A stretch of DNA of 64,000 nt, from positions 1 to 64,000 of the forward strand of contig NZ_AMRL01000005.1 in NCBI RefSeq assembly GCF_000299935.1, read 5' to 3'. A program made the position numbers and the translations under genes. Shown piece by piece: positions 23,844 through 41,602 of this stretch (the first letter of the stretch is position 1; each line of letters begins with the position of its first letter). Under the pieces are notes generated by a model, which saw only the letters and a program-made list of their open reading frames with translations, was not told the origin of the DNA and searched no databases. The DNA comes from Oceanibaculum indicum P24 (GTDB lineage Bacteria > Pseudomonadota > Alphaproteobacteria > Oceanibaculales > Oceanibaculaceae).

Positions 23844-24509
23844 TCAGTTTCCGGCGCGGGCCAACAGTTCCTCGACCTTCGGCAGGATGCGCCCGACCAC
23901 CTCGGCGACTCCTTGCTCGTTAGGGTGGATGCCGTCCGGCTGGTTCAGCGATGGCTCCGTCGCCACCCCATCCAGGAAGAAGGGGTAGAACACCACGTCG
24001 TGCTTCTCGGCGAGGCGGTGGTAGGCGGCGTGGAAGGCCTCGGTATAGTCGCGCCCGAAATTGGGCGGGGCGTGCATGCCGGCCAGCAGCACGGGAATAT
24101 TTTCCTGCTTCAGCCGGGTCAGGATGGCATCGAGGTTGGCGTAGAGCTGTTCGACCGGCTGGCCGCGCAGCCCGTCATTCGCCCCCAGCTCGACGATGGC
24201 GGCATCCGGCTTTTCGGCCAGCGCCCAGTCCAGGCGGGCGAGGCCGCCGGTCGAGGTGTCGCCGGACATGCCGGCATTCACCACCCGCACCTGCTTTCCG
24301 GCAGTACGCAGGGTTTCTTCCAGCTGCGCCGGGAAGCTCTTGCCGTCGGGCAGGCCATAGCCCGCCATCAGGCTGTCGCCCAGGCCCAGGATGACGGTCT
24401 CCGCCCGCGCCGCCGTGCTGGTGAACAGCAGGGCGGCCAGCAGCGCTGGTATGATCAGTCCGTTGAATATCTTGCGCAGCGGGCCATATCCGGATTGGGC
24501 CTGCCGCAC
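23844..24509 (-). CDS. tesA: TesA-type SGNH esterase / thioesterase (arylesterase)
   Basis: A periplasmic SGNH hydrolase. It has a Sec signal peptide (LIIPALLAALLFTSTAARA), block I ILGLGDSLMAGYGL with the nucleophile Ser, block II AGMSGDTSTG, block III GANDGLRG, and block V DGIHPNEQG with the Asp and His. E. coli TesA of the same type hydrolyses acyl-CoAs and aryl esters. I chose the GTG at 24509, which gives a normal signal peptide; the frame stays open to ATGs at 24566 and 24614. It is divergent from the ABC genes ybbA-ybbP, the same arrangement as in E. coli. Confidence 0.9.
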   Translation of the reverse strand: MRQAQSGYGPLRKIFNGLIIPALLAALLFTSTAARAETVILGLGDSLMAGYGLPDGKSFPAQLEETLRTAGKQVRVVNAGMSGDTSTGGLARLDWALAEKPDAAIVELGANDGLRGQPVEQLYANLDAILTRLKQENIPVLLAGMHAPPNFGRDYTEAFHAAYHRLAEKHDVVFYPFFLDGVATEPSLNQPDGIHPNEQGVAEVVGRILPKVEELLARAGN

Positions 24510-24564
24510 TGCAGCAGCCCGGCGGTTTCCACAATCAGTCCCGGCAACAGCGCAGGCTTGCGAC

Positions 24565-25314
24565 ATGACAGCGCCCTCTTCCTCGGCTTCGGACTCGTCG
24601 CGCGATCCGATCATTCAGCTCGACGATGTGCGCCTTAACTTGAGAAGCGGGGCGGGCGAGGTCAACATCCTGCGCGGAATTGACCTCACCATCGCAGCGG
24701 GCGAGACGGTCAGCATTGTCGGTCCGTCCGGGGCCGGAAAATCCTCGCTGATGATGCTGATGGCGGGGCTGGAGCGCGCGACCGGCGGCTCGATCCGCGT
24801 TGCCGGCCATGATCTGGGCGGCATGAACGAGGACCGGCTGGCGCTGTTCCGCCGCGCCCATGTCGGGATCGTGTTCCAGGCCTTCCGGCTGGTGCCGACC
24901 ATGAGCGCACTGGAGAATGTCGCCATACCGCTGGAACTGGCCGGGGCGGCAGATGCGTTCGACCGGGCGGCGGAAGGTCTTGAGGCGGTCGGCCTCGGCC
25001 ATCGTACCGGCCATTATCCCGATCAGCTGTCCGGTGGTGAGCAGCAGCGCGTGGCGCTGGCTCGCGCTTTCGTTGCCGGCCCGTCGCTGCTGCTGGCGGA
25101 CGAGCCGACCGGCAATCTGGACGGCCATACCGGCGAGCAGGTCATCGAACTGATGTTCGACCTGAAGCGCCGCTTCGGCACCACGCTGGTTCTCATCACC
25201 CACGACCTTGATCTTGCGCGGCGCTGCCAGCGCACCATCCATCTTTCGGACGGCCGCATCGTCTCCGACGAGCGCGCGGGCGAGGCCAGCCTCGCCGCTG
25301 CGGCCGGGGGCTGA
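24565..25314 (+). CDS. ybbA: ABC transporter ATPase, YbbA/LolD-MacB type
   Basis: A 249-residue ATPase with Walker A GPSGAGKSS, the Q-loop FQAFRLVPTMSALENV, the signature LSGGEQQRVALARA, Walker B LLLADEPTGNLD and the H-loop LITHDLDLARRCQ. The EPTGNLD and ENV motifs are typical of the LolD/MacB/YbbA class. It pairs with the FtsX-like permease starting 2 bases after its stop. The function of YbbAP is not firmly established, with a proposed role in releasing lipophilic substrates. I chose the ATG at 24565; an upstream extension overlaps the divergent tesA and is unlikely. Confidence 0.9.
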   Translation: MTAPSSSASDSSRDPIIQLDDVRLNLRSGAGEVNILRGIDLTIAAGETVSIVGPSGAGKSSLMMLMAGLERATGGSIRVAGHDLGGMNEDRLALFRRAHVGIVFQAFRLVPTMSALENVAIPLELAGAADAFDRAAEGLEAVGLGHRTGHYPDQLSGGEQQRVALARAFVAGPSLLLADEPTGNLDGHTGEQVIELMFDLKRRFGTTLVLITHDLDLARRCQRTIHLSDGRIVSDERAGEASLAAAAGG

Positions 25315-25315
25315 T

Positions 25316-27850
25316 ATGCCAGTTTGGGGGATGCCAGTCTGGTTGCGCTTTGCCCGGCGCGAGCTGCGCGGCGGGCTGAAAGGCTTCCGCATCTTCCTCG
25401 CCTGCCTGATGCTGGGCGTGGCGGCGATTGCCGGTGTCGGCTCCGTCTCCGAATCGCTGCTGGCCGGCCTGCGCGCCGATGCCAGCCAGATCCTGGGCGG
25501 CAGTGTCGATGTCGAATCGGTGCACCGGCCGATCACGCCGGAGGCGCTGGCCTATCTGCAAACGCAAGGACGATTGTCGCATGTCGCCGACATGCGGGCG
25601 ATGGCGCGCAATCCGAACGGTGACCAGCGCTCGCTCTCCGAACTGAAGGCGGTGGACGGCGCCTATCCGCTCATCGGCGCCATGGAACTCGACCCCGCCG
25701 TGCCGCTGGAAGAGGCGCTCGCCAATCGCGGCGGCGTCTGGGGGGCGGTCATCGAACCCAATTTGCTCGACCGTCTGGGACTTGCTCTGGGTGACAGGCT
25801 CCGCGTCGGCGAGCTGGATGTCGAGGTGCGGGCCACGATCCTGCGCGAGCCGGACCGCGCGGTCAGCTTCGCCAGCTTCGGGCCGCGTGTGATGATCGCC
25901 CGCGACGCGCTGGAGGCGACCGGCCTTATCCAGCCTGGCACGCTGATCGACTATCATTACCGCCTCGTGCTGCCTGCCGGCACCGACCATGCCGCCTGGA
26001 TGCGGGACTTCCGCGACCGCTATGCCGCCGAGAATGGCTGGCGCGTGCGCGGCCTGAGCGAAGCGGCGCCGGGCCTGCGGCGCTTCATCGACCGGGTGGC
26101 GCAGTTCCTGACGCTGGTCGGGCTGACCGCGCTGCTGGTCGGCGGCGTCGGCGTCGGCAATGCGGTGAAGAGCTATCTGGACGGCAAATCCACCACCATC
26201 GCCACGCTGAAATGCCTGGGTGCCGAAGGCGCGGTGGTGTTCCGCACCTACCTGTCGCTGGTCATGATCCTGGCGCTGGCCGGAATCGCCGCCGGGCTGG
26301 TGCTGGGCGCGGCGCTGCCCTATGCTGCGGCGGCGGTGCTGAACCAGCTGATCCCGGTGCAGGTGGCGCCGGCACTCTATGCCGGTCCGCTGGCGCTCGC
26401 CGGCCTGTTCGGCCTGCTGACGGCGCTGGCCTTCTCGCTCTGGCCGCTGGCGAAGGCGAAGGACATCCGCCCGGCGGGCCTGTTCCGCCAGCTGGTCAGC
26501 GGCGAGGGCGGCCGGGTCGGCCTGCCCTATATCCTGGCGCTCGGCCTGTCGGCGGTGGCTTTGGCGGCGCTTGCCATCTTCTCCTCCAATGAGCGGGTGC
26601 TGGCCGGCTGGTTCGTGCTTGGCGCCATCGGTGCCGTCCTCATCTTCCTGGGGGCGGCGCGTCTGCTGATGCTGGGCGTCGCGGCGGCGGGGCGTCCGCG
26701 CCAGCCGACGCTGCGGCTGGCGCTGGCCAATCTGCACCGGCCGGGCGCGCCGACCGCCAGCATTGCGCTTTCGCTGGGGCTGGGCATCACCGTGCTGGTC
26801 GCGGTGGCGCTGACCCAGGCCAATATGGCGCGGCAGGTGACCGAGCAGTTGCCGGAGCAGGCACCCAGCTATTTCTTCATCGATATCCAGCCGAACCAGA
26901 TCGACCGCTTCCAGCAGACCGTCGATGCGGTGCCGGGCATCAGCAAGGTCGAACGGACGCCGATGGTGCGCGGCCGCGTCTCTGCCATCAATGGCGTGCC
27001 TTCCGACCAGGTGACCGTCGATCCGGAGGTGCGCTGGGTGCTGCGCGGCGACCGTGGCCTGACCTATGCCGCCGCCCCGCCGCCGGGAACGCAGATCGTC
27101 GCCGGCGACTGGTGGCCGGAGGATTACAAGGGGCCGCCGCTGATCTCCTTCGATGCGGAGATCGCCGCCGGCATGGGCATCGGCATCGGCGACACGCTGA
27201 CGATCAATGTGCTGGGCCGGGACATCACCGCGACCATCGGCAATCTGCGCCGGATCGACTGGGGCAATCTGTCGATCAACTTCGTCATCATCTTCGCGCC
27301 GGGCACGATGGAGGCTGCACCCCATACCATCATCGCCACGGTGAACACCGATGGTCCGGCGGCCGAGGAGGCGGTGCAGCGCGCCGTCACCGACGAGCTG
27401 CCGAATGTGAATGCGATCCGCGTGAAGGACGCGCTGGAGGCCGCGAACCAGATTCTGGAGGCGGTCGGGCAGGCGGTGCGGATCACCGCCTCGGTCGCCA
27501 TCCTCGCCGGCACGCTGGTGCTGGGTGGGGCGGTGGTCGCCGGCCATCACCGCCGGGTCTATGACGCGGTGGTGCTGAAGGTGCTGGGGGCGACGCGGCG
27601 CGACGTGCTGGCGGCCTTCCTGCTGGAATACGGCCTGCTGGGAGCGATGGTGGCGCTGATCGCCTCTGTCGTCGGCACCATCGTCGCCTGGGCGGTGCTG
27701 GTCTTCGTCATGCGTTCCGACTTCGTGTTCGCGCCCGGTGTCGTGATTTGGACATCATTGCTGTGTACGGTCATTACCGTCGCACTGGGTCTTGCCGGGA
27801 CCTGGCGGGCGCTGGGCCAGAAGGCGGCCCCGCTGCTGCGCAACGAATAA
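25316..27850 (+). CDS. ybbP: ABC transporter permease, FtsX-like, YbbP type
   Basis: An 844-residue permease with an N-terminal helix (GFRIFLACLMLGVAAIAGVGSVSESLL), a large periplasmic domain, a core FtsX block around residue 260 (FLTLVGLTALLVGGVGVGNAVKSYLDGKSTTIATLKCLGAEG), then a second periplasmic domain and a second FtsX block at the C-terminus (GTLVLGGAVVAGHHRRVYDAVVLKVLGATRRDVLAAFLLEYGLLG). Length and architecture match YbbP. The start is the ATG at 25316 (2 bases after the ybbA stop; ATG 25331 is also possible). It is probably cotranscribed with ybbA. Confidence 0.9.
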   Translation: MPVWGMPVWLRFARRELRGGLKGFRIFLACLMLGVAAIAGVGSVSESLLAGLRADASQILGGSVDVESVHRPITPEALAYLQTQGRLSHVADMRAMARNPNGDQRSLSELKAVDGAYPLIGAMELDPAVPLEEALANRGGVWGAVIEPNLLDRLGLALGDRLRVGELDVEVRATILREPDRAVSFASFGPRVMIARDALEATGLIQPGTLIDYHYRLVLPAGTDHAAWMRDFRDRYAAENGWRVRGLSEAAPGLRRFIDRVAQFLTLVGLTALLVGGVGVGNAVKSYLDGKSTTIATLKCLGAEGAVVFRTYLSLVMILALAGIAAGLVLGAALPYAAAAVLNQLIPVQVAPALYAGPLALAGLFGLLTALAFSLWPLAKAKDIRPAGLFRQLVSGEGGRVGLPYILALGLSAVALAALAIFSSNERVLAGWFVLGAIGAVLIFLGAARLLMLGVAAAGRPRQPTLRLALANLHRPGAPTASIALSLGLGITVLVAVALTQANMARQVTEQLPEQAPSYFFIDIQPNQIDRFQQTVDAVPGISKVERTPMVRGRVSAINGVPSDQVTVDPEVRWVLRGDRGLTYAAAPPPGTQIVAGDWWPEDYKGPPLISFDAEIAAGMGIGIGDTLTINVLGRDITATIGNLRRIDWGNLSINFVIIFAPGTMEAAPHTIIATVNTDGPAAEEAVQRAVTDELPNVNAIRVKDALEAANQILEAVGQAVRITASVAILAGTLVLGGAVVAGHHRRVYDAVVLKVLGATRRDVLAAFLLEYGLLGAMVALIASVVGTIVAWAVLVFVMRSDFVFAPGVVIWTSLLCTVITVALGLAGTWRALGQKAAPLLRNE

Positions 27851-27861
27851 GGGAGGCGGAC

Positions 27862-28134
27862 ATGCGCGTTCTGATACTGGCGGCCCTGCTTCTGACAGCT
27901 GCTGTCCCGCAGGCGCGCGCCGAGGAACCTTCCGGCAATCCGGTGGAGACGCTGCGCGAAGGGATGACGAAGGCGGTCGAGGCCCTGCGCGATCTTGCCG
28001 AGGAAGTGCAGCGCTATGGCGTCCCCTATTTCGACAAGGACGGCAACATCGTCATTCCGCGCAAGGTGCCGGATGAGGGTGTGCCCGATACCGCCGATAC
28101 AGGGCAAGCGGAGGCCCGCTCGATCACACTCTGA
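27862..28134 (+). CDS. small secreted protein of unknown function
   Basis: A 90-residue protein with a Sec signal peptide (MRVLILAALLLTAAVPQARAEE). The mature part is amphipathic, with an Asn-Pro-Val start and an acidic C-terminus (EVQRYGVPYFDKDGNIVIPRKVPDEG). It has no domain that I recognise. GGGAGG precedes the ATG and it lies 11 bases after ybbP, so it may be cotranscribed. The lanthipeptide precursor genes start about 100 bases later behind their own promoter, so a link to them is not indicated. Confidence 0.6.
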   Translation: MRVLILAALLLTAAVPQARAEEPSGNPVETLREGMTKAVEALRDLAEEVQRYGVPYFDKDGNIVIPRKVPDEGVPDTADTGQAEARSITL

Positions 28135-28173
28135 TCTGATCGCTGTCACCATTTTTTCTTAAAAAACAGTCAA

Positions 28174-28202
28174 TTGTCTGCATTTTCCGGTTGCGATATG
28201 CT
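28174..28202 (+). promoter_or_regulatory. putative promoter of the lanthipeptide operon
   Basis: TTGTCT (28174-28179) and TATGCT (28197-28202) are 17 bp apart; each matches four of six consensus bases. The start of transcription would be near 28209, 28 bases before the first precursor's ATG. An AT-rich tract, TTTTTTCTTAAAAAA (28152-28166), lies at about -57 to -43 and could act as an UP element. Confidence 0.5.
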
Positions 28203-28236
28203 GCCCGCCATCATTGGTTTGAGGGCGGAAATCATC

Positions 28237-28524
28237 ATGTCGCAGCAGAATTTCGAGAGCCTGAAGAAGAGTGTCGAAGCCGATCCGGCACTGGTCCAGA
28301 AACTGTCCGGCGTGAAGGAAGTGGGCGATGTCGCAGAGTTTCTGGCCGGCGTTGCCGCGCAGAAGGGCATTGCGCTGAATGCTGATCAGATCAAGGCACA
28401 GATGACGGCCAGCAAGGCCGGCCCGGACGACGAGCTCGACGATGCAGCACTGGAAGCGGTGTCCGGCGGCGGCTCGCCCTATTGCATGTTCACCAAGGGC
28501 TGCTACTGCATTTTCACCAAGTGA
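28237..28524 (+). CDS. lanthipeptide precursor 1 with Nif11-type leader
   Basis: A 95-residue RiPP precursor. Residues 1-78 form a Nif11-like leader: FESLKKSVEADPALVQKL, then the VAEFLAGVAAQKGIAL helix, and an acidic end DDELDDAALEAV just before the double-glycine SGGG. Cleavage after Gly78 would leave the 17-residue core GSPYCMFTKGCYCIFTK. It contains dehydratable residues Ser80, Thr86 and Thr94, and cysteines 83, 89 and 91. SPYC and TKGC are each spaced i to i+3, as in short lanthionine and methyllanthionine rings. The leader and core, the paralogue immediately downstream and the LanM gene after it together support a class II lanthipeptide. It starts at the ATG following GGCGGAAATCATC; the frame is open upstream to 28174 but that part lies over the promoter. 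Confidence 0.88.
   Translation: MSQQNFESLKKSVEADPALVQKLSGVKEVGDVAEFLAGVAAQKGIALNADQIKAQMTASKAGPDDELDDAALEAVSGGGSPYCMFTKGCYCIFTK
28387..28488 (+). repeat. 102-bp tandem-duplicated segment, copy in precursor 1
   Basis: This segment encodes residues 51-84 of precursor 1, which are identical in precursor 2 (28709-28810). By my count the two differ at 6 of 102 nucleotides and all six are third-position, synonymous changes, while the rest of the two genes diverges much more. It covers the last third of the leader, the cleavage site and the first six core residues. Confidence 0.8.
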
Positions 28525-28558
28525 CGGTAGGCCAAAAAAGCCGACAGGGAGGAAGGTA

Positions 28559-28867
28559 ATGGCAAATCAGGCATTCGAGGCGCTGAAGGCAGCCGTGAAG
28601 TCGGACAAGGCACTGCTCGACAAGCTGTCCGGTCATAAGGAAATGGGCGACGCCGCCGAGGCGCTGGCCGGCATCGCCAAATCGAAGGGCATCGATATCT
28701 CCGCCGAGCAGATCAAGGCGCAGATGACGGCCAGCAAGGCCGGCCCGGATGACGAGCTGGACGATGCCGCGCTGGAAGCGGTGTCCGGCGGCGGCTCGCC
28801 CTACTGCATGACCACCAAGGGCTGCTATTGCATGTGCACCGGCAAGTTCACCGAAAACTGGTTCTGA
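28559..28867 (+). CDS. lanthipeptide precursor 2 with Nif11-type leader
   Basis: A 102-residue paralogue of precursor 1. The Nif11-like leader (FEALKAAVKSDKALLDKLSG...EALAGIAKSKGI) ends in the same acidic stretch and SGGG; residues 51-84 are identical to precursor 1. The core after Gly78 has 24 residues: it starts GSPYCMTTKGCYCMC and then continues for nine residues to the C-terminal Phe102. It offers Ser80, Thr85, Thr86, Thr94 and Thr98 for dehydration and Cys83, 89, 91 and 93 for ring formation, one more cysteine than precursor 1. Strong ribosome binding site (GGGAGGAAGGTA before the ATG at 28559). It lies 34 bases after precursor 1 and 23 bases before the synthetase gene. Confidence 0.88.
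   Translation: MANQAFEALKAAVKSDKALLDKLSGHKEMGDAAEALAGIAKSKGIDISAEQIKAQMTASKAGPDDELDDAALEAVSGGGSPYCMTTKGCYCMCTGKFTENWF
28709..28810 (+). repeat. 102-bp tandem-duplicated segment, copy in precursor 2
   Basis: The second copy of the segment described for precursor 1; it encodes the same 34 residues with 6 silent differences. This pattern fits either recent gene conversion or strong selection on the leader end and cleavage site. Confidence 0.8.
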
Positions 28868-28890
28868 GCCCGTATTTCCTTGCCGCCTGA

Positions 28891-31653
28891 GTGACAAAGC
28901 CGTTCGAGGATATCCTCCGGCCGCTGTGCGACAGTGCGCTGGAGGAGTTTAATCTGGCCACGGAAGTGTCGGGGGTGGACGCGACAGTCGGGCGGGTGGT
29001 GTGCGAGGGCCTGCGTCCCTTCCTGCTGGAACGGCTGTGCACCCTTGCAGCGCCGGTTCTGTTCGCGGCGTTCGACAAGGCCCGTCCCGCGCCGCCGCCA
29101 ATCTCTCTCCTGCTCGACGAACCGCCGGAGGATGTGTCCCGCACCACCTACGCAGCCTTTGCCGCTGGCATGGAAGCTGGCGGCCTTGATGATTTGCGGT
29201 GTTTTTACCCCGGCCTCGACACGGCGCTGACCCTTCTCATCGAGCATCATTCCGCCACCGCGCTGGAGCTGGCGGTGCGGCTGCAGGCGGATCGCGCCGC
29301 CTTGCGCGGCTTCATGCCAGGCTGGGCGGAAGGCGTGCCGGCGCTTTCGTCTATCGGGTTCGGTCTGTCCGATCCGCATGCGCAGGGGCGCATGGTTGCC
29401 AGTATCGACTTCGCGGACGGTACCAAGCTGGCCTACAAGCCACGCTCGCTGGCGGCGGAGGCCGGATTCGCCGGTGTGCTGCGCTGGCTGGCGGTGCGCA
29501 ATCCCGCCTTGCCGGATCAGCGCCTGCCGCGCGTGCTGGATCGCGGCACGCATGGCTGGATGGAATGGGTCACCCCCGCCGATAGCCGCGACGAAGGCGA
29601 GGTGGCGGCATTCTACCGCCGACTCGGCATGCTGATGGCGGTGCTTGGCCTGATGCGCGGCACCGATATCCATTCCGAGAACCTGATCGCGGCGGGCGCC
29701 TATCCGGTCATCGTCGATCTGGAATGCCTGCTGGCGCCGGACGCGATGCCAGACTGGCTGAAACGCCTGTCCGACCCGCCGCCCTTCATGGAGAGCGGGC
29801 TGCTGCCCTTCCTGCTGCCGCTGGGTGAGGGGCAGTGGCGCAATATCGGTTCCGGCGGGCCGCCGCTGCCGCCGGTGCCGCTGCCGGATCACGGCTTCCG
29901 TCATACTGGCACCGACTGGATTCGCCGCGCGGACATTCTGCGCCAGCCGGAGGAACCTTGCCTGCCGCGCCTTGGCGGCGCGGAGCAGGATATACGCGCG
30001 CATCTGCCGGCATTGCAGGAAGGCTACCGGCAGGCGTTGGAGGCAATGCTGGCGCAGCGCGCCGATTTTCTCGCTGAAGATGGGCCGCTGGCCGGTTTTG
30101 CCGATGCGCGCTGCCGTTTCGTCGCACTGCCGACGGACTCCTACCGACGGCTGCTGGTCCGGCTGCGCGAGCCGGACATGATGGCCATGCCCGACGCGGT
30201 GGAGCGGCAGGCGGCGCGCATCGCCCGTCCGGCCCTGCCGGGTATCGCGGAGGCCGACTGGCAACGGCTGCTGGCGGCAGAGGCGGCGGCGCTCGGCCGG
30301 GGAGATGTGCCGGCCTTCCTGTTCAGCCCGTCCGAGGGCATCCTCTCCGAATCCGCTGGCGCGCCGGTCGGAAGGCTGGGCGACCGGTCGCCGCTGGAGG
30401 CGGCAAGGCAGGCCATAGGGGGGCTGGACGAAAAGACGTTGGCGCGACACACGGCCATCCTGCGCGGCGCCTTTGCCCCCACGCCTCTGCCTGTGGAGGG
30501 CGATCTGCTGGACCGGCTGGCGGGGTGGCTGGCGGCGGGAGCGATTCCGCGCGGCGATGGCGGGGTGGACTGGCTGCGCCCGCATGAGGAATTGCCGATT
30601 TCGTTTCGCGTCGCCGGCCACGGCCTCTACCACGGCAGTGCCGGTATCGCGCTGGCGCTGGTGGCGGCTGGCCGGCACCGGGGGCGGTCTGACTGGCTGA
30701 ACCTTGCGGCCAAGGCGCTGCTGCCACTGCGCCATCTCGCGGCGGATGGGACAGCGCAATCGCTGGCGCAGGCGTTCGGTGCCGGTCATGCGGTCGGCCT
30801 GGGCGGCATGATCGCCGCGCTGGTCTGGGCCGGCGATCTGCTGGAAGAACCCGGTTATGTCGCGAATGCGCAGGCACTGGCGGACCGGTTGGGTGATCCG
30901 GCGGCGGTCTCCTCCTTCGACTTCTATGACGGTATCGCCGGGCTGTTACCGGCGCTGCACCTGCTGGCACGCCGGACCGGGAATGCCGCGCTGCCCATGC
31001 TGATGGCGCGCTGGGCGGACCGGCTGCTCGCCTTGGCGACGGAAGATGAGGACGCACTTCTCTGGCGTCCCCGGCGCGGTCAGCCGGTGGCGGGGCTGGC
31101 GCATGGCCAGTCCGGCATGGCGGTGGCGCTGGCCTCTGCCTTCAACGCGACGGGACAGCAGCGCTATCTCGCGGCGGCACAGGCCGCCCTGCTACCGGAG
31201 GACCGGCTGTTCAATGCCGATACGGGCAACTGGCCGGACCCCAACGGGAAAGGTCGCCCTTCGACCGCCTGGTGCCATGGCGCGCCGGGTGTGGCGCTGG
31301 CGCGCGCGGCGTTGCTGAGGCTGGCGCCGGAGGGCTTCGCGGAGCGCCGGACGGAGCTGGCACGGGCGCTCGCAACCACCGCTGCCGATCCCGCCGGGGA
31401 AGCCGGCGATCTGTGTTGCGGGCTGGCTGGCCGGTTGTCCGTGCTCGGGCTGGCCGGGGTGGAGGATACGGCGCTGGCGGAAGCGGCCCGGCTGCGCTGG
31501 TCCGGTGACAGGCCGGGCCTGTGGAGCGACGCGCTGCCCTTCGCGGCGCCCGACCCCTGCCTGTTCAAGGGCGTGGCGGGGATCGTCCTGGCGCTGGTGC
31601 AGGCGGAGGTGCCGAAACTGGCGCCGCCCGTCCTGCTCCCCGCGCTGGGTTAG
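28891..31653 (+). CDS. class II lanthipeptide synthetase LanM (CCG-type)
   Basis: A 920-residue bifunctional enzyme that would phosphorylate and eliminate Ser/Thr and then add Cys thiols to make lanthionine rings. The N-terminal dehydratase (about residues 90-500) has GTKLAYKPRSL (Lys183), RGTDIHSENLIAAG (Asp259, His261, Asn264) and VIVDLECLL (Asp276, Glu278) of the kinase-like active site. The C-terminal LanC-like cyclase (about 570-915) has HGLYHGSAGIALAL, AHGQSGMAVAL, WCHGAPG (Cys795) and DLCCGLAG (Cys842, Cys843). In most LanC domains the last ligand pair is Cys-His; here it is Cys-Cys, so zinc is held by three cysteines as in ProcM. The GTG start directly follows an in-frame TGA, so no earlier start exists, and no clear ribosome binding site is visible. 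The stop overlaps that of the convergent aldo/keto reductase by 4 bases. Confidence 0.93.
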   Translation: MTKPFEDILRPLCDSALEEFNLATEVSGVDATVGRVVCEGLRPFLLERLCTLAAPVLFAAFDKARPAPPPISLLLDEPPEDVSRTTYAAFAAGMEAGGLDDLRCFYPGLDTALTLLIEHHSATALELAVRLQADRAALRGFMPGWAEGVPALSSIGFGLSDPHAQGRMVASIDFADGTKLAYKPRSLAAEAGFAGVLRWLAVRNPALPDQRLPRVLDRGTHGWMEWVTPADSRDEGEVAAFYRRLGMLMAVLGLMRGTDIHSENLIAAGAYPVIVDLECLLAPDAMPDWLKRLSDPPPFMESGLLPFLLPLGEGQWRNIGSGGPPLPPVPLPDHGFRHTGTDWIRRADILRQPEEPCLPRLGGAEQDIRAHLPALQEGYRQALEAMLAQRADFLAEDGPLAGFADARCRFVALPTDSYRRLLVRLREPDMMAMPDAVERQAARIARPALPGIAEADWQRLLAAEAAALGRGDVPAFLFSPSEGILSESAGAPVGRLGDRSPLEAARQAIGGLDEKTLARHTAILRGAFAPTPLPVEGDLLDRLAGWLAAGAIPRGDGGVDWLRPHEELPISFRVAGHGLYHGSAGIALALVAAGRHRGRSDWLNLAAKALLPLRHLAADGTAQSLAQAFGAGHAVGLGGMIAALVWAGDLLEEPGYVANAQALADRLGDPAAVSSFDFYDGIAGLLPALHLLARRTGNAALPMLMARWADRLLALATEDEDALLWRPRRGQPVAGLAHGQSGMAVALASAFNATGQQRYLAAAQAALLPEDRLFNADTGNWPDPNGKGRPSTAWCHGAPGVALARAALLRLAPEGFAERRTELARALATTAADPAGEAGDLCCGLAGRLSVLGLAGVEDTALAEAARLRWSGDRPGLWSDALPFAAPDPCLFKGVAGIVLALVQAEVPKLAPPVLLPALG

Positions 31654-40450: not shown

Positions 40451-41602
40451 TCAGGATGCGTCGGTGCGCAGGCTCTTCTTCAGCTTTTCGGAGGCGGATT
40501 TCAGCTGCCCGCAGGCGGCCATGATATCCGCGCCGCGCGTCGTGCGCACCGGCGAGGCATAGCCCGCCGCCATAAGGATCTTGGAGAACTTGTCGATCCG
40601 CGTGTTGCTGGACCGCTCAAAGGGCGACCCCGGCCAGGGGTTGAACGGGATGAGGTTCATCTTCGCCGGAATACCCTCCAGCAGCTTGACCAGCGCGTGC
40701 GCATCCTCGTCGCTGTCGTTCACGCCCTTCAGCATCACGTATTCGAAAGTGATGCGCCGCGCGTTCGAGGCACCCGGATAATCGCGGCAGGCCTGGATCA
40801 GCTCGGCCAGCTTGTATTTGCGGTTCAGCGGTACGATGACGTCGCGGATCTCGTCGGTCACCGCATGCAGCGAGACGGCCAGGTTCACGCCCAGCTCCTC
40901 GCCGCATTTCGCCATGGCCGGCACGACACCGGCGGTGGACAGGGTGATCTTGCGCCGGGACAGCGCGATCCCCTCGCCATCCATGATGATCTTCAGCGCC
41001 TTGGCGACATTGTCGTAATTATAGAGCGGTTCGCCCATCCCCATCATGACGATGTTGGTGAAGTTGCGCCCTTCCATGCTGGCCGGCCATTCGCCCAGCT
41101 TGTCGCGCGCCAGCATCACCTGGCCGACGATTTCAGGGGCGCCCAGATTGCGCACCCATCGCTGCGTGCCGGTGTGGCAGAACTTGCAGGTCAGCGTGCA
41201 GCCGACCTGGGAGGAGACGCACAGCGTGCCGCGATCCTCCTCGGGGATGAAGACGGTCTCGACCTCGTTGCCATCCTCGAAGCGCAACAGCCATTTGATG
41301 GTGCCGTCAGTGGATTTCTGCTCGGTGACCACCTGCGGCCGCTCGATGCGGAATTGCTCGGCGAGTTTCCCGCGCAGATCCTTGGCGATGTTGGTCATCG
41401 CCTCGAAATCGGTGACGCCGCGATGATAGACCCAGTTCCACACCTGCTTCATGCGGAAGGCGGGCAGGCCCATCGCGGCGAAGGCGGCGGCCATATCGGC
41501 GCGGTCCATGCCGACGAGGTTCGGGCGCGCGGCTGCGGGGGCGGCCGGGACGACGGGTTCCGGCTTCCAGATTTGATCGATCAGAGGCTGTACAGCGGAC
41601 AT
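40451..41602 (-). CDS. rlmN: 23S rRNA (adenine(2503)-C(2))-methyltransferase
   Basis: A 383-residue radical SAM enzyme that methylates A2503 of 23S rRNA and A37 of some tRNAs. The cluster motif CxxxCxxC is visible in [45 protein letters not shown] and [20 protein letters not shown] are typical of RlmN. The second catalytic cysteine lies in [12 protein letters not shown]. Length is standard. Confidence 0.96.

What the first reader, a model, noticed from the sequence alone, without database searches (positions are those of the whole stretch)
31411..31422. The LanM cyclase domain uses a CCG motif, as in substrate-tolerant ProcM
The zinc ligands read WCHG (Cys795) and DLCCGLAG (Cys842, Cys843). 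Most LanC-type domains have Cys-His at the last pair. A Cys-Cys-Gly motif with three Cys ligands marks the CCG group of LanM, which includes ProcM and is associated with low substrate selectivity. It fits a locus that has two different cores.
Basis: partly seen in the sequence, partly recalled or inferred. Interest (0 to 1): 0.75.

Follow-up and report, generated by a model that had tools for sequence, protein, structure and literature searches.

The report
Three-cysteine lanthipeptide synthetase, apparently a specialist
The enzyme does carry the three-cysteine zinc site of the ProcM group, but in this organism and its relatives it is found with one conserved peptide design only, so the motif marks ancestry here and is no sign that the enzyme accepts many substrates.

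Summary
The 920-aa LanM (28891-31653 +) reads WC795HG and LC842C843G at 31411-31422. In an alignment with other LanM and LanC-like proteins these cysteines fall on the three zinc positions, where CHG enzymes have Cys, Cys, His. On full-length and on dehydratase-only trees the enzyme lies on the CCG side of a strongly supported CCG/CHG split (100/100 and 95/100).

ProcM-type tolerance goes with many dispersed precursors that have conserved leaders and hypervariable cores. Here only two Cys-bearing precursors were found, both beside lanM. Their cores are variants of one design, G-S-P-[YW]-C-x2-T-x-G-C-Y-C-x2-T, kept in all nine intact precursors found in six genomes. Cores are more conserved than leaders (76% against 55% mean identity). 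Seven further Nif11-type peptides have no Cys and dissimilar leaders. A published CCG enzyme, NpuM, also has a single substrate.

Most likely this is a specialist member of the CCG lineage, making a compact peptide of about three rings. Export is probably by an unlinked NHLM transporter. The invariant last Thr follows every Cys in the short core, so a full ring set would need one reverse-direction ring, as reported for ProcM-clade enzymes.

The parts
28237..28524 (+). precursor A1 (95 aa): Nif11-like leader ending VSGG, core GSPYCMFTKGCYCIFTK at 28471-28521
   Evidence: TIGR03798 23.9 bits, below the 32.3 cut-off
28559..28867 (+). precursor A2 (102 aa): Nif11 leader, core GSPYCMTTKGCYCMCTGKFTENWF at 28793-28864
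   Evidence: TIGR03798 33.2 bits, above the cut-off
28891..31653 (+). lanM, class II lanthipeptide synthetase, 920 aa, GTG start
   Evidence: TIGR03897 482 bits; best structural matches LicM2 6st5 and CylM 5dzt
29206..30324 (+). dehydratase domain (DUF4135, residues 106-478) with conserved DPH, YKP, TDIHSEN and VDLE motifs
30619..31620 (+). LanC-like cyclase domain (residues 577-910)
31102..31104 (+). His738 of AHGQ, expected catalytic acid of the cyclase (LanCL1 His219 equivalent)
   Evidence: invariant in the alignment; role from PMC9934072
31273..31275 (+). Cys795 of WCHG, first predicted zinc ligand; the next codon, His796, is the residue equivalent to LanCL1 His277
31411..31422 (+). L-Cys842-Cys843-Gly: second and third predicted zinc ligands, the CCG motif

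Best explanation
This is a class II lanthipeptide synthetase of the CCG (three-Cys zinc) lineage that works as a specialist on one conserved peptide design. Shown by sequence: two adjacent Nif11-type precursors with near-identical cores, a LanM with an intact dehydratase and a Cys795/Cys842/Cys843 zinc site, and no other Cys-bearing Nif11-type precursor found in the genome. Inferred: LanM dehydrates the Ser and Thr of the core and adds the three (A1) or four (A2) Cys to them. A1-type cores have exactly three Ser/Thr and three Cys, spaced S-x2-C, T-x2-C and C-x2-T. If all react, three small rings may result, and the ring to the last Thr must be made from a Cys that precedes it, a direction that ProcM-clade enzymes are reported to use. 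Inferred: the leader is cut after Gly-Gly and the product exported by the unlinked NHLM peptidase/ABC system on contig C3. The CCG motif is an inherited mark of the lineage, possibly kept for bidirectional ring closure, and is not evidence of broad tolerance.
For: Motif and alignment. Tree: all 17 CCG rows plus two degenerate cyanobacterial LanMs form one side of a 100/100 branch against 13 CHG rows, and the dehydratase domain alone gives the same split at 95/100. The window clade of six enzymes is 100/100. Narrow substrate set: nine intact precursors in six genomes share the core, always close to this LanM. Core identity equals or exceeds leader identity in 18 of 21 pairs of seven precursors. 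The genome-wide Nif11 and precursor-profile searches give only A1 and A2 with Cys. Export: TIGR03796 (1089.8 bits) and TIGR03797 (912.7 bits), both over their cut-offs, plus TolC, at C3. The exporter is present in the six genomes with lanM and absent from congener G001, which has neither lanM nor precursors. Precedent for a CCG enzyme with one substrate and reverse rings: NpuM (PMC13060382).
Against: No activity, zinc content or ring pattern is known. ProcM-group substrates can include peptides without Cys (PMC11251773), so the seven Cys-less Nif11 peptides (1-5 Ser/Thr in each core) are not strictly excluded as dehydration substrates, although their leaders are only 22-37% identical to A1/A2. 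A conserved native core does not prove that the enzyme would refuse others. The genome is a draft (71 contigs, 98% complete), so a precursor could be missed, and a precursor with another leader type would not be found by these profiles. The exporter correlation rests on few independent events.
Confidence: 0.7

Rival explanations
1. The enzyme is a substrate-tolerant ProcM-like synthetase, and the two cores are a small sample of what it can or does process.
For: CCG motif and CCG-side tree position; Nif11-type leaders; published association of CCG with promiscuity (PMC10027976, PMC10783134); seven more Nif11-type peptides in the genome.
Against: Only two Cys-bearing precursors, both adjacent and with one core design. 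The other Nif11 peptides lack Cys and have dissimilar leaders. Relatives in the second genus carry a single precursor of the same design. NpuM shows CCG without many substrates.
Confidence: 0.15
2. A1 and A2 are the two halves of a two-peptide lantibiotic, and the enzyme is a dual-substrate LanM of the usual kind with an incidental CCG.
For: Two adjacent precursors before one lanM; one congener has the same short/long pair (L027).
Against: The cores share 13 of 17 positions. G002 has two short cores plus a third copy whose core has decayed, and the three genomes of the second genus have one precursor each. This pattern fits gene duplication and loss better than an obligate pair.
Confidence: 0.1
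3. The locus is decaying or silent: a solitary lanM without adjacent transporter, protease or regulator.
For: No lanT, lanP or immunity gene recognised among the adjacent genes; one congener lacks everything; one precursor copy in G002 has lost its core.
Against: All expected catalytic residues are intact, the frames are open, the cores are conserved between genera, and an intact NHLM exporter is present elsewhere in the genome.
Confidence: 0.05

Closest known systems
NpuM / nostolysamide synthetase (ProcM clade, Nostoc punctiforme; PMC13060382)
   Same: Class II LanM with three Cys zinc ligands, a Nif11 leader with Gly-Gly site, and a narrow substrate set instead of many variable substrates
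   Different: Cyanobacterial and clustered with a GNAT and a PCAT transporter; its core has four Cys and another pattern; its ring pattern has been studied experimentally, here nothing has
ProcM / prochlorosins (Prochlorococcus) and SyncM (Synechococcus)
   Same: CCG motif in the cyclase, Nif11-type leaders, solitary lanM with processing and export genes possibly elsewhere
   Different: ProcM and SyncM have 29 and 79 reported precursors with diverse cores (PMC10783134, PMC10027976); here two precursors with one conserved core. ProcM sequence not aligned directly
LicM2 (6st5) and CylM (5dzt), CHG-type LanM with solved structures
   Same: Same two-domain fold; best matches by sequence and by fold
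   Different: Cys-Cys-His zinc site, as is usual for LanM; other leaders and cores
NHLM/NHLP export system (TIGR03796, TIGR03797)
   Same: Present in the genome at C3, and its TIGR03796 transporter in all relatives that have this lanM; the leaders share the L..V.GG end expected for C39 cleavage
   Different: Not linked to lanM; that it handles A1/A2 is inferred

Membership tests
CCG-type (three-Cys zinc, type IIa / ProcM-clade) LanM | DUF4135 dehydratase fused to LanC-like cyclase | tested here: met
CCG-type (three-Cys zinc, type IIa / ProcM-clade) LanM | Cys in place of His at the third zinc position, with the other two Cys kept | tested here: met
   C795, C842, C843 aligned on the zinc columns
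CCG-type (three-Cys zinc, type IIa / ProcM-clade) LanM | Groups with other CCG LanMs on a tree | tested here: met
   CCG/CHG split 100/100 full length, 95/100 dehydratase only. The cyclase domain alone does not give one CCG clade.
CCG-type (three-Cys zinc, type IIa / ProcM-clade) LanM | Zinc bound by the three Cys | not testable with these tools
   needs metal analysis or a structure
ProcM/prochlorosin-type promiscuous system | Nif11-type leaders on the substrates | tested here: met
   A2 over the TIGR03798 cut-off; A1 below it (23.9 against 32.3) but 72% identical to A2 in the leader
ProcM/prochlorosin-type promiscuous system | Many precursors, partly dispersed, with conserved leaders and hypervariable cores | tested here: not met
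   two adjacent precursors, conserved cores; seven dispersed Nif11 peptides lack Cys and have leaders 22-37% identical to A1/A2
ProcM/prochlorosin-type promiscuous system | Enzyme falls with ProcM inside the CCG group | tested here: inconclusive
   ProcM not in the collections; cyanobacterial enzymes L033-L035 form another sub-branch and the order of sub-branches is unresolved
ProcM/prochlorosin-type promiscuous system | Tolerance for unrelated cores in vitro | not testable with these tools
   needs purified enzyme
Bidirectional cyclase (Cys on either side of Dha/Dhb) | At least one ring from a Cys N-terminal to its Dha/Dhb | not testable with these tools
   only suggested by the invariant last Thr after all Cys in the short cores

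The most novel reading that the evidence does not exclude
In this lineage the three-Cys zinc site is kept by selection for closing rings in both directions on one fixed core (S-x2-C, T-x2-C, C-x2-T) and not for accepting many cores. That would separate the two properties usually bundled under 'CCG', and the product would be a new small three-ring lanthipeptide family.
Probability: 0.3. Interest if true: 0.5.

Novelty: new member of a known kind. Interest (0 to 1): 0.3.

Why it matters
The CCG motif is often read as a flag for promiscuous enzymes useful in peptide engineering. This locus, with five sibling genomes, looks like a natural counter-example: a CCG enzyme tied to one conserved core in two genera. 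It makes a fair comparison possible between generalist and specialist members of one lineage, and warns genome miners not to infer tolerance from three residues. The conserved, balanced core also makes a definite ring-pattern prediction.

Tried and rejected
The genome-contig scan gave only two distant LanMs. ProcM could not be fetched: no marine picocyanobacterial LanM turned up in the collections searched, and a plasmid locus is not accepted as a centre for genome searches. The cyclase-domain tree of 51 rows had many long branches and left deep links open, so full-length and dehydratase trees were used. No model coordinates were among the files at hand, so ligand distances were not measured; pLDDT is low just before both zinc loops (788-792, 837-841). 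A sigma-70 and terminator scan of 28100-28900 found nothing. The upstream ABC transporter (24391-27850) was considered as a lanthipeptide exporter and set aside: the genome's only C39 peptidase is on C3, and the pair looks like a LolD/FtsX-type transporter (own reading of the sequence, no search run). tblastn of A2 against plasmids found nothing.

Full report
Observation. The ORF at 28891-31653 (+, GTG start, 920 aa) is a class II lanthipeptide synthetase: TIGR03897 482 bits against a cut-off of 304, with DUF4135 at residues 106-478 and LANC_like at 577-910. Its bases 31411-31422 read Leu-Cys842-Cys843-Gly, and Cys795 lies in WCHG. An alignment with LanM and LanC-like proteins from plasmids and genomes puts the three cysteines on the zinc columns. 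Enzymes such as the Trichormus LanM (L036, beside a mersacidin-type precursor) and the Bacillota LanMs (L039, L043, L094) have CHG there. CylM's ligands are Cys875, Cys911 and His912 (PMC4550811). The expected catalytic acid, His738 of AHGQ, and His796 of WCHG are present; the roles of these positions in LanC enzymes are described in PMC9934072. A predicted structure (mean pLDDT 87.8, pTM 0.88) matches LicM2 and CylM best, as does the sequence.

Is it in the CCG group? Three trees were built. On the cyclase domain (51 rows, zinc pair removed) CCG is strongly clustered (4 changes against 16 on shuffles) but does not form one clade. On full-length LanM (32 rows, the decisive column removed) all 17 CCG rows, plus two cyanobacterial LanMs that have lost zinc ligands, form one side of a 100/100 branch against 13 CHG rows. 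The dehydratase domain alone gives the same split at 95/100, so the motif marks a lineage of the whole protein. The window enzyme sits in a six-member clade (100/100): itself, two congeners (about 64% and 63% identity) and three genomes of a second genus (50% over the alignment, 51-52% over the matched part). That clade is separate from the Nostoc/Pseudanabaena branch and from haloarchaeal CCG enzymes; the order among CCG branches is unresolved. A published cyclase tree describes three independent three-Cys subclades (PMC11251773). ProcM itself was not available, so kinship to ProcM within the CCG group was not tested.

Does CCG mean tolerance here? ProcM and SyncM have 29 and 79 reported precursors (PMC10783134, PMC10027976), and prochlorosin-type families pair conserved leaders with diverse cores (PMC11251773). 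In this genome the Nif11 model finds nine peptides. Two are A1 and A2 beside lanM. The other seven are scattered, end in Gly-Gly, and have no Cys in their cores; their leaders are 22-37% identical to A1/A2, against 72% between A1 and A2. A profile of seven A1/A2-type precursors adds only one weak, Cys-less candidate. In 385 genomes of the class the A1/A2 family appears in six genomes of two genera, the same six that carry this LanM clade. Nine intact precursors share G-S-P-[YW]-C-x2-T-x-G-C-Y-C-x2-T (in the two long cores the last Thr follows a fourth Cys, so the spacing C-x2-T counts from the third). In the seven compared first, core identity averages 76% and leader identity 55%, with the core at least as similar as the leader in 18 of 21 pairs. 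The pooled pN/pS is 0.50 for the core and 0.63 for the leader; with only 17 codons this difference means little. This is the opposite of a diversity-generating system. NpuM is a published precedent for a ProcM-clade enzyme with one substrate (PMC13060382). Cys-less peptides have been reported among ProcM substrates (PMC11251773), so the seven dispersed peptides are unlikely but not excluded as substrates.

Likely product. The seven short cores have three Ser/Thr and three Cys, and one long core has four and four; A2 has five and four. In the short cores the spacing is S-x2-C, T-x2-C, C-x2-T. The last Thr of the short cores is invariant and follows every Cys. Complete cyclisation would therefore need at least one Cys that precedes its partner. 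ProcM-clade enzymes, NpuM among them, are reported to form rings in both directions. This ring model is inference; a Ser or Thr may also stay unmodified, as Ser4 does in NpuA.

Export. No transporter with a leader peptidase and no LanP-type protease was recognised beside lanM. The genome's only C39 peptidase is on contig C3, in a TIGR03796 transporter (1089.8 bits) followed by a TIGR03797 partner (912.7 bits) and a TolC protein. All six genomes with lanM have a TIGR03796 exporter over its cut-off. The congener G001 lacks the exporter, lanM, precursors and Nif11 peptides. The leaders of A1/A2 and of the Cys-less peptides share the L..V.GG end (with small variations), so a shared exporter is plausible but not shown.

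Verdict. The motif and the group placement are confirmed. Substrate tolerance is not supported by the genome, and the relation to ProcM in particular is untested. The locus is a new member of a known kind, with a core family that did not turn up in the few literature searches made here; that is weak evidence of novelty, because most subscription journals are not held.

Noticed in passing
own genome G000: C1:4471-4692 -, C1:223711-223950 -, C6:32744-32989 -, C11:20251-20502 +, C18:69843-70040 +, C19:49970-50110 -, C20:39322-39576 - (L018-L024): Seven scattered Nif11-leader peptides with a Gly-Gly site and short cores without any Cys; the C6 one (core IFGAVLNAGFGAMSLPG...FWLGF) has close relatives in two congeners (L120, L121). 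Candidate unmodified or otherwise modified exported peptides.
   Followed up: partly
G000:C3, about 23.8-30.3 kb (L031), and G001-G003: An unlinked NHLM export system; the congener G001 lacks the exporter, lanM, A1/A2-type precursors and all Nif11 peptides together, which suggests that they form one functional unit spread over the genome.
   Followed up: partly
L026:9948-10226 - (congener G002): A third precursor copy between the two intact ones, with the leader kept and the core replaced by a Cys-less tail (GGESRDQNRRVEIIII): a precursor whose core has decayed.
   Followed up: partly
L034:4533-7793 and L035:2500-5715 (Nostoc and Pseudanabaena plasmids): LanMs inside the CCG side whose zinc residues are lost (ANG + CWG, ANG + MWG); L035 lies beside Nif11 precursors. 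Possibly dehydration-only enzymes.
   Followed up: no
L041:3797-6718 (Rhizobium beringeri plasmid): A LanM without a normal zinc site (SCG + HSG), next to MoaD/ThiS-family, MoeB and methyltransferase genes; related LanMs occur on many Rhizobium and Sinorhizobium plasmids.
   Followed up: no
L052 / G325:C1:4572122-4574997 -: A CCG LanM whose dehydratase and cyclase parts lie in two adjacent ORFs; a natural split or a frameshift.
   Followed up: no
L026:5668-6852 and L027:4431-5576, against window 40451-41602: In both congeners lanM lies next to an rlmN-like gene; in the window the same gene is about 9 kb downstream on the other strand, so the locus has been rearranged within the genus.
   Followed up: no
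L029 (G036) and L047 (G160): Two genomes of the second genus carry a second CCG LanM in another place, 36% identical to the window's, with no A1/A2-type precursor found beside it.
   Followed up: no
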